A stretch of 64,000 nucleotides of DNA, taken from the NCBI RefSeq assembly GCF_000348725.1, contig NC_020813.1, forward strand, positions 186,001-250,000. Direction: 5' to 3'. Within the stretch, counting starts at the first letter, position 1. Each line of letters opens with the position of its first letter. A program made the position numbers and the translations under genes. This stretch comes from Pseudobdellovibrio exovorus JSS (GTDB taxonomy: Bacteria; Bdellovibrionota; Bdellovibrionia; Bdellovibrionales; Bdellovibrionaceae). Below are positions 20,494-26,509 of this stretch, piece after piece. Under the pieces are notes generated by a model. That model did no database searches. It saw nothing but the letters and a program-made list of their open reading frames with translations, and was not told the origin of the DNA.

Positions 20494-21411
20494 GTGCAAA
20501 ATACAGAAACGCAGTTAAATCAAAAGCTAGAAAATTCAAACACTTCGAGTGCATTGCCGACTTTGTCAGAGTATATGGATTACCGCCTGTATCTGGCGGA
20601 TTTCTATCGTGCAAAGAAGAATATGACCCGCACTTCTGTGCGTCCTTACTCGTATGCGATTTTTTCTGCAGCGGCGGATATTAAGTCTCCGAACTATTTG
20701 AAAATGATCATCGAAGGAAAGCGCAATCTGTCGTTAGACATGGTGGCGAAGTTCGCAAAAGCGTGTTCGTTGAATAAAGCTCAAAGTGATGAATTAAAAC
20801 TTTTAGTGATGTTCAATCAAGCGGAAGATCCTGCTGATCGCAACTATGCTTTGAAGCAGTTATCTGAATTCCGTGTTGAGCAAAAATTGAAACTGGGTCA
20901 GTTAGATCGCCGTGTATTTGAAAAAGTACCGAACTGGATCGGCTGGATTATTTACGCCATGGTTGATCAAGAGGGCGTGAGTTTTGAAACGTCTCAATTG
21001 AAAGAACTTTTACGCGGTAAAGCTTCTGATAGCGAGATCAACGATGCTTTGGAAAATCTGTTGAAATCTGGCGAGCTGGTACGTGATGGCGCTGGAAAAA
21101 TCAGTAAAGGCAAACCAAGTGAAGCTCCAGAAGAAATTCCTGCGGCGTTGGTGCGTAAGTTACAAATGCAGTTGATGTACTTGGGTTTAGAGTCTTTGTA
21201 TCAAGATAGTGCCACTGAGCGCGAGTTCGGTTCGTTGACATTATCCCTGACCGCAAAAGAGTTCGAAGATATTAAGTTTAAATTGCGACAAATGCGCAAA
21301 GCCTTGCATAAAGATAATTCGATTGCGCGTATGTCTTCAAAAGGTGAACGCGTGTATCAGTTGAACCTTCAATTGTTCCCTGTGAGCAACGCGTCTAAAA
21401 AGCCCAACTGA
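20494..21411 (+). CDS. TIGR02147 family regulator-like protein
   Basis: 305 aa. It begins at a GTG with GGAGG 5 bases upstream; an overlapping ATG is out of frame. The N-terminal part has the family hallmarks: EYMDYRLYLADFYRAKK, then FSAAADIKSPNYLKMIIEGK, which is the helix-turn-helix-like part, then RNLSLDMVAKFAKACSLN. A DUF4423-like domain follows, ending in the usual LQLFPVS strand. These proteins are numerous in Bdellovibrio and Fibrobacter and are presumed transcription factors; targets are unknown. A partial relative lies at 22313-22891. Confidence 0.85.
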   Translation: MQNTETQLNQKLENSNTSSALPTLSEYMDYRLYLADFYRAKKNMTRTSVRPYSYAIFSAAADIKSPNYLKMIIEGKRNLSLDMVAKFAKACSLNKAQSDELKLLVMFNQAEDPADRNYALKQLSEFRVEQKLKLGQLDRRVFEKVPNWIGWIIYAMVDQEGVSFETSQLKELLRGKASDSEINDALENLLKSGELVRDGAGKISKGKPSEAPEEIPAALVRKLQMQLMYLGLESLYQDSATEREFGSLTLSLTAKEFEDIKFKLRQMRKALHKDNSIARMSSKGERVYQLNLQLFPVSNASKKPN

Positions 21412-21790: not shown

Positions 21791-22237
21791 TTACTGTAAC
21801 AAAGATTCACTTTGTTGTTTAAGAGCGCGCAGCCTGTTGCAGGCACGGGTTGCCATTTCAAAATGCTTTTGGGCATCTTTCAAAAGCGCCGACTCTTTGT
21901 CCGGATTAATTTTAGGTAGGCGTAGGTTGCCCTCTTGGTCCGCATCGGGATGCTCTGGAGCATGTTTCCAGACAAAATCAGCGCGTGAAACAACCACGCA
22001 GTATTGCGCTTTGCAAATCATCTCTTTGCGCAAATAGGAACCACCATTGGCTGTGCGAGTGGTGTTGAGGTTTTTCAGATTCAGTGAGCTGGCTTCGATT
22101 TGCAGGCGCATATTATCGCGTGTACGGCAGGGGTCTTTGTCGACCCCTAAAGCCAACTTCTGCTTTTCCTCTGCAGAGGCTATCGCAGACAAGGCAGTCA
22201 TCAATAAAAATATCAGAACGGCAAAAGACGCCTTCAT
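21791..22237 (-). CDS. Hypothetical periplasmic protein
   Basis: 148 aa. A clear signal peptide (MKASFAVLIFLLMTALSAIASA) is followed by a mature part with four cysteines (DPCRTRD, MICKAQYC, TRACNRL) that could form two disulfides, and a helical C-terminus. The ATG has AAGGAGATT upstream. I do not recognise the family. It is monocistronic. Confidence 0.62.
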   Translation of the reverse strand: MKASFAVLIFLLMTALSAIASAEEKQKLALGVDKDPCRTRDNMRLQIEASSLNLKNLNTTRTANGGSYLRKEMICKAQYCVVVSRADFVWKHAPEHPDADQEGNLRLPKINPDKESALLKDAQKHFEMATRACNRLRALKQQSESLLQ

Positions 22238-22312: not shown

Positions 22313-22891
22313 TTAGACCTTAGTTAGAGGGAAAAGTTGAATAGCTAAGGTGTAGACCTCAGCGCCATTGGGGTCTTCCATCATGGTCGCGACTTTTTTA
22401 CGCGTTCGCAGAAGTAAGCTTTTGACCTTGGCTAGATTTTTCCCGCTGGTGGGAATGGTGATAGCGCTGATCTCGCGCATTTCTAGGGGAACATTATCTA
22501 AAGAGTGGCCGGCAAGATCGAGGATCTGTTTGTGATAGTTACGAATAGCAACAGAAGGGATATCACAGGTAGTAGACACGGGTCGCGCCAGTCGTACCAT
22601 ACGTGAGTTTTCAATTTTCAAAAAGCCCATGCGGATCAGTCGCTGTAAAGCCTCTTCCGCCATTTCGCGGGTCAGATTTAAACGTTTTGCAATCCAGTCC
22701 GTATCGGCTTGATTCGATTTCAAGCGTGCTAAATTCAAAATAGCTAAATAATACCAATCAGAAACCAAGTAGAACTCATCCTCGTATAGATTCAAATAGG
22801 ACTCTTCTAAGCGCGAACTTTGTAAAACCTGTGTGACGATCTGATCTTTTTGTTCTTTCGAGAGCTTCAGAAGATTTAGAACGGCGGAGAC
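22313..22891 (-). pseudogene. TIGR02147 gene lacking its N-terminal part
   Basis: The open frame from 22891 to 22313 encodes the C-terminal two thirds of a TIGR02147 protein: LKLSKEQKDQIVTQVLQ, then EFYLVSDWYYLAILNL (the DUF4423-like core), ending VYTLAIQLFPLTKV, matching the end of the intact protein at 20494-21411. The HTH-like N-terminal part (about 90 residues) is missing. The frame is closed by a TAA at 22892-22894 with no ATG or GTG inside the upstream part; only a TTG at 22795 could start a 160-aa protein. A truncated gene is most likely. Confidence 0.65.
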
Positions 22892-22947
22892 TTAGTGAAT
22901 AATGGCGGCGGGTTAGCCGAAAAAATATCCTTTTCACTTTTGCAAAG

Positions 22948-23784
22948 TTGGATTCTTATTTACTATCGTGTCTGTCTTCTGTCTCTTGCCAGTTGGACTC
23001 TAGGCAGAGAGTTGTTCTGCAAAATATCTTAAATGGTTTACCCAGTGAAAGACTGAATCAGAACCTGATTCAGTTTTATTCGGAATCCAATTACCCCGGT
23101 TTTTTTGTTATCGACTCTGAAGTGAAAGTGGCGAAGACAGGAAGCACACCGGGAAGTCCGATTTATATCAATACAGATATGATCTACACGCTAGATCACA
23201 TCGGTTACAAAGTTCCAATTGGCATACCTGAAATTTTGGCCATCTTAATTCATGAATTGGGGCATCACTACGGATCTGAGTCCCATGAGTTCTTAGATTT
23301 ATTAGGCGTGCGTGTGGGGATGTTTATTTCTCAGCAGAGCTACATGACGGCGCCACTGCCATGGATGCGCGGATTTGGAATTTCGGCAATCAATACGTCT
23401 AATGATGTGACGACCTTCCCTGATGTGATGTTGTTTTTAGGTGACGAAGCGATCAATATCAGTGAGGAAGTAAAAAAGAGTGCGTTGTGTCTGTACCAGT
23501 TGTATTTCGGTGCCGAGACTGAAACCAGACGTCCCACAGGAATTTTTATGTACAATCTGCATTGGTCATTTGCCAAACAGCGTGGCGATTTGTCTTCAGA
23601 TCTGACGATGACGGCTTTGGTGACCTATAACTGTGAATATGGCCTGAGCTATAAGTCAGGACGACAAGAGCACTCTTTGATGGTGCGTCTGAAAGCAAGG
23701 CCCTCTAAAACCGGAGTGGGTTACAACGTGAAGCGTGTTATGGTCGAGCAAAAAGACGGAGCGACTTACACTCCCCGTCGCTAA
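22948..23784 (+). CDS. HExxH metalloprotease-like protein, N-terminus uncertain
   Basis: 278 aa if the TTG at 22948 is used. The motif HELGHHYGSESHE at about 102-114 fits a zinc metalloprotease (HExxH). Such proteins are usually exported, but here no signal peptide is seen and no Shine-Dalgarno precedes the TTG; the next in-frame ATG is near residue 78, inside the domain. The upstream sequence stays open only to 22903. The first residues (YLLSCLSSVSCQLDSRQ) look like the start of a mature domain. The gene may have lost its signal peptide together with the 5' end of the divergent TIGR02147 gene. Its 3' end overlaps a convergent gene by 4 bases. Confidence 0.6.
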   Translation: MDSYLLSCLSSVSCQLDSRQRVVLQNILNGLPSERLNQNLIQFYSESNYPGFFVIDSEVKVAKTGSTPGSPIYINTDMIYTLDHIGYKVPIGIPEILAILIHELGHHYGSESHEFLDLLGVRVGMFISQQSYMTAPLPWMRGFGISAINTSNDVTTFPDVMLFLGDEAINISEEVKKSALCLYQLYFGAETETRRPTGIFMYNLHWSFAKQRGDLSSDLTMTALVTYNCEYGLSYKSGRQEHSLMVRLKARPSKTGVGYNVKRVMVEQKDGATYTPRR

Positions 23785-24350: not shown

Positions 24351-24702
<352 letters not shown>

Positions 24703-24929: not shown

Positions 24930-25289
24930 ATGAGCCAAAGAACAAAAGAGCCTCTTCTTACCAAAGAGGGGCAAGTGTTAAAAACTCTCCGTCGAAAACA
25001 TAAACTGACTTTAAAGGAAGTGTCTCAAAGAACAGGACTATCGGACACGATGGTTTCCTTCATTGAGAACGGACGGACTGACCTTCCTAAAAACAACGAC
25101 ACTTTAGACAAGTTATTAAGGGTCTATGGGGGCATTTCAAGAAAGTATTTTTATGAACTCGTTCGAGACTTCAAAGAAGACGACAACGACCTTCACTACC
25201 TTGGTAAGGTGCTTGGAAACTTGACTCCTGAGGACCTCAAATTCGTCCGACAAATCGTAGACGTACGATTGAGGGGACCCAAAAAATGA
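24930..25289 (+). CDS. XRE-family transcriptional regulator of the mobile element
   Basis: 119 aa. An HTH_3/XRE domain spans about residues 15-75 (LKTLRRKHKLTLKEVSQRTG, then LSDTMVSFIENGRTDLP), with a helical C-terminal part. It overlaps the integrase gene by 4 bases (ATGA), so the two are made together. In ICEBs1-type elements an XRE repressor of this kind (ImmR) controls excision. No Shine-Dalgarno was seen before the ATG. Confidence 0.85.
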   Translation: MSQRTKEPLLTKEGQVLKTLRRKHKLTLKEVSQRTGLSDTMVSFIENGRTDLPKNNDTLDKLLRVYGGISRKYFYELVRDFKEDDNDLHYLGKVLGNLTPEDLKFVRQIVDVRLRGPKK

Positions 25290-26509
25290 GCGAAGAAAAA
25301 ACGGATAAAAAGCCAAGAAACAAAAAAGATCCGAGCCTTGTTGAAAATGGCATCTATCAAGTTGGTCCAAATCTCTACGATGTCAAAGTCAGGAAAAGAA
25401 TCAAGGAGGACCCGAAGGGTGCAGGTGTTCAACACACAAAAGCAAAACGCAATGTACGCTTTTTGACTGAAGCCCGAAAAATCAGAAATCAGTTTGTCCA
25501 CGAGTTGGAACTGAAAGAGCAAGAACACCTGAATGGCGACTACACTTGGAAAGAAGCAAAAGAAAAATATTTTGAAGAACGCTACAAGCAAGTAAGCCAA
25601 GACCAAACTCTTAAAGAAAAAATAGGCGACAAGACTTTTTCCAATCAAAAAGTGACCGTTGAGAAGCACACCGAGACTTGGGACTCAATGCGGCTGTCGG
25701 ATTTCAAGCAAGAATTTATCCGAAATGACTTGGCAGAAAAATTAAGAGGCTATCCTAAATCAACGGTGAAAAGTATTTTGAAACACATTCGTGCAGTTTT
25801 TGAATATCACTACAACAAGCAAATAACTCCACTCACCCACAACCCATGCAAAGGAATTCATCCGTGGGGTGCCGACAATCGTGAACAGGTGGATGACATT
25901 CCTAAAATGAGCATGGAAGAAGTTTCAAAACTTCTTACTCATACAGCGGCAACTAACTCCGAATGGCACTCGATTTTTTACTGTGCCTATCATACGGGAA
26001 TGCGTTCGGGGGAATTGTGGGCGTGGAAGTGGGAAGACATTGATGCAGACTTTAAAATCATTCGATTGAGAAGGTCCTACTGCTTTCAATCAAAAAAAGA
26101 AAAGACGCCGAAGAACAAACACGCCCGAAGTATTCCGATTAACAAATCATTGAGACGCCATCTTATGAATTTAAAAATTCAAGCAGACTCGTCCTATGTG
26201 TTGCCTCATTTGCCAATGTGGCGAGATGGGAAAATCGCAATAGTCTTAAGAGGATTTCAGAAAGAACTTAAAATTACGGAGACTTCTTTTCATTCTATCA
26301 GGGCTTCACACATTACGCATATGCTACTGAAAGGCATTTCATCTCAGGCGTTGCAGGAAACCGTCGGACACGCCGACTACCGAACGATGGCGAGATATGT
26401 GCGAGACTTGGATAGGGAACGAGCGATTAAGAATATTACTGATGTTCTCGATGATGACATTGAGGCGAAAATCATTCCGTTCAATCCGAAAAAAGAAGAC
26501 GTGGGTTAG
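25286..26509 (+). CDS. Tyrosine recombinase / integrase
   Basis: 407 aa. An N-terminal arm-binding part (to about 125), a core-binding SAM-like domain (about 130-190), and the catalytic domain are present. Catalytic residues are visible: Arg240 (HTGMRSGELW), Lys278 (KNKHARSIPI), His336 and Arg339 (HSIR), His362 (VGHADY) and the nucleophile Tyr371 (YVRD). It should integrate and excise the element at ssrA. Length and layout are those of phage/ICE integrases. Confidence 0.94.
   Translation: MSEEKTDKKPRNKKDPSLVENGIYQVGPNLYDVKVRKRIKEDPKGAGVQHTKAKRNVRFLTEARKIRNQFVHELELKEQEHLNGDYTWKEAKEKYFEERYKQVSQDQTLKEKIGDKTFSNQKVTVEKHTETWDSMRLSDFKQEFIRNDLAEKLRGYPKSTVKSILKHIRAVFEYHYNKQITPLTHNPCKGIHPWGADNREQVDDIPKMSMEEVSKLLTHTAATNSEWHSIFYCAYHTGMRSGELWAWKWEDIDADFKIIRLRRSYCFQSKKEKTPKNKHARSIPINKSLRRHLMNLKIQADSSYVLPHLPMWRDGKIAIVLRGFQKELKITETSFHSIRASHITHMLLKGISSQALQETVGHADYRTMARYVRDLDRERAIKNITDVLDDDIEAKIIPFNPKKEDVG

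What the first reader, a model, noticed from the sequence alone, without database searches (positions are those of the whole stretch)
22795..22960. Two divergent genes that both seem to have lost their 5' ends
On the minus side a TIGR02147 gene lacks its HTH-like part and is closed by a stop at 22892-22894. On the plus side an HExxH protein has no signal peptide, no ribosome site and only a TTG start. The two broken ends face each other across less than 60 bases, which suggests a single deletion that removed both starts and the promoter region.
Basis: partly seen in the sequence, partly recalled or inferred. Interest (0 to 1): 0.5.

Follow-up and report, generated by a model that had tools for sequence, protein, structure and literature searches.

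The report
Broken gene pair, half flipped
In a predatory bacterium, two neighbouring genes that point the same way in nearly all the relatives examined appear to have been broken when part of the first was flipped against the second, leaving both without their beginnings; this looks like ordinary gene decay, though it points to a little-studied gene pair.

Summary
A TIGR02147/DUF4423 fragment (minus, 22316-22882) and an HExxH protein (plus, 22883-23784) are both truncated at one shared point, 22882/22883, with no filler. The zincin homology runs 65 bases upstream of the TTG, first in another frame (GGDLVNNGGGLAEK, 22883-22924). The stop at 22892-22894 is merely the complement of a zincin Leu codon.

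The proposed cause does not hold. In 29 of 29 loci from relatives the TIGR02147 gene is on the same strand as the zincin gene, in 27 directly upstream and touching it. The fragment is sister to the operon partners of three same-genus genomes. A plain deletion cannot turn such a pair head to head. An inversion inside the operon can, with loss of the HTH part and signal peptide (neither found elsewhere). One distant locus (L116) does have an intact divergent pair.

The zincin remnant evolves about twice as fast as intact orthologues and breaks 14 of 55 invariant positions; the TIGR fragment evolves normally. Both frames stay open, so the break is probably recent or partly tolerated.

Along the way: TIGR02147 genes often overlap a downstream secreted zincin-like gene, a pair I did not find described.

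The parts
22316..22882 (-). C-terminal remnant of a TIGR02147/DUF4423 regulator gene (N-terminal HTH part missing); its own stop codon is 22313-22315
   Evidence: 92 bits to TIGR02147 positions 90-271/272; 51% to same-genus partners from residue 4 on; tree place
22882..22883 (.). Rearrangement junction: end of regulator homology (minus) against start of zincin homology (plus), no filler
   Evidence: Match limits
22892..22894 (-). TAA that closes the minus frame; it is the antisense of a zincin Leu codon (TTA)
   Evidence: Sequence and frames
22883..22924 (+). Relic of the zincin's first mature residues, GGDLVNNGGGLAEK, out of frame with the rest
   Evidence: Frame read; profile hit 27.9 bits, E 8.1e-8
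22919..22926 (+). A-rich stretch in which the zincin reading frame slips by one base
   Evidence: Frames against orthologues
22924..23784 (+). Rest of the secreted zincin-like gene (HExxH), open to its stop; no signal peptide
   Evidence: Matches to 28 of 99 genomes, own included; alignment; model pLDDT 86.0
22948..22950 (+). TTG, first start codon in the zincin frame, no ribosome site before it
23251..23268 (+). HELGHH motif (zinc site), intact
   Evidence: Invariant columns of alignment A1

Best explanation
The locus is a broken two-gene operon. In relatives, a TIGR02147 regulator gene (HTH plus DUF4423) is followed on the same strand, touching or overlapping, by a gene for a secreted zincin-like protein (signal peptide, then GGD.VNNGGG, then HExxH). 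Here the regulator's C-terminal part has been inverted. Its cut edge (about codon 59 of the L002 orthologue) is fused head to head to the first mature codons of the zincin. The regulator's HTH and start, and the zincin's start and signal peptide, are gone. Shown: co-directional order in relatives, opposite order here, abutting homologies, missing pieces not detected elsewhere, a further frame slip. Inferred: that the event was an inversion inside the operon followed or accompanied by loss of the ends, that it is fairly recent, and that the products no longer do their job (no HTH part, no export).
For: Same-strand order in 29 of 29 fetched loci, 27 directly upstream; 15 of 17 loci in named genomes, six of them the same contigs as before. 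Window fragment sister to the same-genus partners L002, L006, L007. Homologies abut at 22882/22883. HTH part not found in the window or, except as paralogues, in the whole genome. Zincin remnant breaks 14 of 55 invariant columns against 0-4 of 55-59 in intact ones; path length 3.59 against 1.79-1.87.
Against: The second breakpoint is not recognisable: no HTH part or signal peptide beside the fragment, no repeats at the segment's ends. L116 shows that a divergent pair can exist. Both frames are free of stops, and the zincin keeps its zinc ligands and is predicted to fold, so loss of function is not proved. The TIGR fragment evolves at the normal rate.
Confidence: 0.62

Rival explanations
1. One reading: the two genes were divergent and one deletion removed both starts and the shared promoter.
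For: Head-to-head layout with a single clean junction. One distant genome has a divergent full-length TIGR02147 gene beside this zincin (L116).
Against: 0 of 29 loci are divergent; all four same-genus genomes with the orthologue (G004, G005, G008, G012) are co-directional; the fragment belongs with the co-directional partners, while the L116 regulator is remote (branch 3.94).
Confidence: 0.08
2. Inverted duplication, then deletion: a second copy of the regulator lay divergently upstream of the intact pair, and one deletion ran from inside that copy, through the original regulator, into the zincin gene.
For: It gives the same junction and needs no second breakpoint beside the fragment. TIGR02147 is a highly paralogous family.
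Against: No second copy of this subfamily is known in the own genome and only one partner-type copy was seen in each of the three closest genomes; it takes more steps.
Confidence: 0.17
3. The short forms are still used: an HTH-less DUF4423 protein and a leaderless cytosolic zincin, from new starts.
For: Both frames open; neutral drift would leave the zincin frame open in 8% of runs at 12% change and 0.75% at 20%; TIGR fragment at normal rate; zinc site kept; model pLDDT 86.0; a promoter-like match spans the junction, but the number of matches is at chance level.
Against: No ribosome site, only TTG, first mature helix cut by that start; frame slip; 14 of 55 invariant positions broken; no ATG near either new end.
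Confidence: 0.1
4. Assembly or sequencing artefact.
For: Only one assembly was seen; the frame slip lies in a run of A.
Against: Single closed contig; no repeats at the ends that could misjoin; the missing HTH part is absent from the whole genome, which a mere misjoin would not explain.
Confidence: 0.03

Closest known systems
TIGR02147 (NCBIfam Fsuc_second) / Pfam DUF4423
   Same: The fragment is a clear C-terminal half of this family (92 and 150.9 bits)
   Different: The N-terminal HTH third is missing and the gene is inverted against its partner
Zinc peptidases of deuterolysin type (PDB 1eb6, 1g12, 1ge6)
   Same: HExxH; best structural matches of the intact orthologue's residues 28-174, Z 8.8-8.9
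   Different: No sequence match to any PDB chain or family; extra C-terminal beta domain; Foldseek found no match at E <= 0.001
Pseudogenes made by local inversion with loss of ends (general knowledge)
   Same: Two truncated neighbours meeting head to head at one junction
   Different: The second breakpoint is not recognisable here

Membership tests
TIGR02147 | Score over the curated cut-off (50 bits) | tested here: met
   92 bits
TIGR02147 | Full-length match including the N-terminal HTH part | tested here: not met
   Profile positions 90-271 of 272 only; HTH part absent from the window
TIGR02147 - secreted zincin pair (as seen in relatives) | Co-directional, touching or overlapping genes | tested here: not met
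   Window: opposite strands; relatives: same strand in 29 of 29
Peptidase_M48 (PF01435) | Score over the gathering cut-off (20.3) | tested here: not met
   13.8 bits for the window protein; 5 of 16 members match weakly, best E 0.036
Deuterolysin-type zincins | Shared fold of the zincin domain | tested here: inconclusive
   Z 8.8-8.9 for three chains, other rows 7.4 or less; no Foldseek hit at E <= 0.001
Pseudogene pair | No expression or function of the remnants | not testable with these tools
   Needs transcript and protein data

The most novel reading that the evidence does not exclude
The broken pair is one instance of an undescribed two-gene system in Bdellovibrionota: many paralogous, overlapping pairs of a TIGR02147/DUF4423 regulator and its own secreted zincin-like (sometimes degenerate-zincin) protein with a GxGG start, where each regulator serves its own effector. 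This window is then a natural double knock-out of one pair, in which the effector decayed before the inversion removed the regulator's HTH part.
Probability: 0.35. Interest if true: 0.55.

Novelty: new member of a known kind. Interest (0 to 1): 0.3.

Why it matters
By itself it is gene decay in a predatory bacterium, but it corrects the mechanism: the evidence is against a simple deletion of a shared promoter. The comparison it forced shows that TIGR02147 regulators, a large paralogous family with almost no literature in the library searched (0 papers for TIGR02147; 1 for DUF4423, a table entry), often sit in overlapping pairs with secreted zincin-like proteins. If these pairs are functional units they would give predatory bacteria a repertoire of regulated secreted enzymes that can be tested pair by pair.

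Tried and rejected
A chimera in which the FlgC-like gene (21791-22237) took over the zincin's signal peptide: rejected, because the relative L039 has its own signal peptide on the same kind of protein.

The orphan HTH gene at genome position 107871 as the missing regulator half: rejected; it has its own start and continues past the break point as a 127-residue frame.

The full TIGR02147 gene at 20494-21411 as a source of the fragment: rejected; it is full length and remote (branch 3.18).

Shared gene neighbourhood with relatives: nine longer stretches share with the window's vicinity only the pair itself; the few other weak hits lie far off in the window. The second breakpoint could therefore not be placed from gene order. 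Repeats at the segment's ends: none. The divergent DUF neighbour in the own genome: no match at E <= 10 (the tool warns that an empty answer alone proves little).

Naming the zincin by sequence: no family over cut-off, no PDB sequence at E <= 10, no Foldseek hit at E <= 0.001. The C-terminal beta part aligns only at middling Z (7.4 or less), which that tool says may be a common arrangement.

Papers: searches for TIGR02147, DUF4423 (36), Bdellovibrio exovorus with inversion (30), alone (32), with pseudogene (50), exovorus with A11Q (51), and a mixed query (57) listed nothing whose title or abstract start describes this locus. I saw passages of PMC12546842 and PMC7137782; the rest I saw as listings only. 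The species (B. exovorus JSS) is inferred: genome size 2,657,893 against 2.66 Mb in PMC7137782; no call names the window's genome.

Rows not counted: 2 of the 31 non-own matches had no locus and were not examined for gene order. The intact set holds 12 of the 29 loci, picked by me as near orthologues; the TIGR counts use the same 12. The two trees hold 24 relatives and the window each. One search looked at 13 TIGR loci; L091 is the L025 gene and was dropped.

Full report
What is there. On the minus strand the frame 22316-22891 is a TIGR02147/DUF4423 protein that begins at profile position 90 of 272 (92 bits; DUF4423 150.9 bits). On the plus strand is an HELGHH protein whose first start codon is TTG 22948.

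Where the homologies end. The best matches of the minus frame in other genomes start at residue 4, base 22882 (G005 and G008 cover 4-191 and 4-192 of 192 at 51%; one search likewise). The plus protein's homology does not start at the TTG. Its best matches begin at residue 4 or 5 of the frame that opens at 22903, and a different plus frame encodes GGDLVNNGGGLAEK at 22883-22924, which intact orthologues carry right after the signal peptide. A profile of that region finds it at 27.9 bits, E 8.1e-8. So the homologies meet at 22882/22883. The stop that closes the minus frame is the complement of a zincin Leu codon. The zincin homology changes frame once, in the A-rich stretch at about 22919-22926.

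The order in relatives. The zincin was found in 28 of 99 genomes searched, the window's own included. In the 29 loci fetched from relatives a TIGR02147 gene is on the same strand in all 29: directly upstream and touching or overlapping in 27, upstream with one more zincin frame between in L026, and downstream in L021. A further conserved gene, divergent from the pair, precedes it in 16 of 29. In named genomes (17 loci) 15 have the regulator directly upstream on the same strand; L116 has a full-length but remote TIGR02147 gene in divergent position, and L119 is more complex. In a tree of 55 TIGR02147 proteins the window fragment is sister to the partners in L002, L006 and L007, all same genus (SH-aLRT 93). 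It is therefore the upstream partner, now pointing the other way.

The event. A deletion cannot reverse a gene. An inversion with one cut inside the regulator (about codon 59 of the L002 gene) and one at the zincin's signal-peptide/mature boundary gives the observed head-to-head junction; the other ends must then have been lost. The regulator's HTH part is not in the window. A search of the whole genome with an HTH-part alignment (A3) finds only paralogues and one chance-level match. No signal-peptide match lies beside the fragment. Left of 22313 lie 75 bases before the FlgC-like gene, whose relative has its own signal peptide. No repeats lie at the segment's ends. The second breakpoint is thus unknown, and the inversion is an inference from orientation. 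An inverted duplication followed by deletion would give the same picture and is kept as a rival.

State of the remnants. Among 12 intact orthologues the zincin has 55 invariant columns from N8 on. The window copy breaks 14 of them, against 0 to 4 of 55-59 when each intact one is tested against the others; for the TIGR fragment it is 5 of 37 against 0 to 4 of 37-41. The zincin remnant lacks the IPIPILPIPD segment and the PWYK tail. Its mean path to nine outgroup sequences is 3.59, against 1.79, 1.84 and 1.87 for L002, L006 and L007; for the TIGR fragment it is 2.26 against 2.08, 2.03 and 2.10. Yet both frames are stop-free. In a simulation of neutral drift the zincin frame stays open in 8% of runs at 12% amino-acid change and 0.75% at 20%. 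I read this as a zincin that diverged as a coding gene and was broken late; the normal rate of the TIGR fragment agrees with a late break. Remnants still in use are not excluded: the window zincin keeps its HELGHH site and is predicted with pLDDT 86.0 and pTM 0.83.

What the zincin is. The intact orthologue L105 was modelled at pLDDT 84.0. No family is over cut-off and no PDB sequence matches. Foldseek found nothing at E <= 0.001. A second alignment places deuterolysin-type zinc peptidases first for residues 28-174 (Z 8.8-8.9). I call it zincin-like and leave its family open.

A wider pattern. Twelve further TIGR02147 loci in relatives and three of the window genome's own (34214, 1212703, 1583016) are followed by an abutting, co-directional gene with a hydrophobic N-terminus and a GxGG-type motif: 15 of the 16 loci examined. 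An HE-containing zincin-like motif is seen in 14 of those 15: 11 by pattern, and L071, L081 and L090; L085 is cut by its contig end. The 16th, own gene 206566 (window 20494), has none, nor has own gene 102761. The sample was chosen by similarity to the window fragment or by being in this genome, so it is not a census. Searches of the paper library found nothing on TIGR02147 and one table entry for DUF4423.

Verdict. The single-deletion reading is replaced by inversion within a conserved operon with loss of both 5' ends. It is an ordinary kind of decay, of modest interest, with a possibly interesting gene pair behind it.

Noticed in passing
L098, L099, L101 (own genome 34214, 1212703, 1583016) and relatives' loci L071-L096: TIGR02147 genes followed by an abutting secreted gene with a GxGG motif after the signal peptide and an HExxH or HExxY/HExxR type helix; looks like a general two-gene unit.
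   Followed up: partly
window 24351-24702 and 24930-26509: tmRNA gene (Rfam 179.1 bits; missed by ARAGORN) followed by an HTH gene and a phage-type integrase: a likely integrated element at the tmRNA gene. No second copy of the tmRNA 3' end was found in the window.
   Followed up: partly
window 21791-22237 (-): FlgC-like protein with a signal peptide (53.9 bits to FlgC, below its cut-off 102.1); relative L039 also has a signal peptide. Possibly an exported FlgC paralogue.
   Followed up: partly
G000 107871-108179 (L102): A stand-alone 127-residue HTH half of TIGR02147 directly followed by an unrelated co-directional gene.
   Followed up: no
L116 (named record): The one locus with a full-length, remote TIGR02147 gene divergent from the zincin gene.
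   Followed up: no
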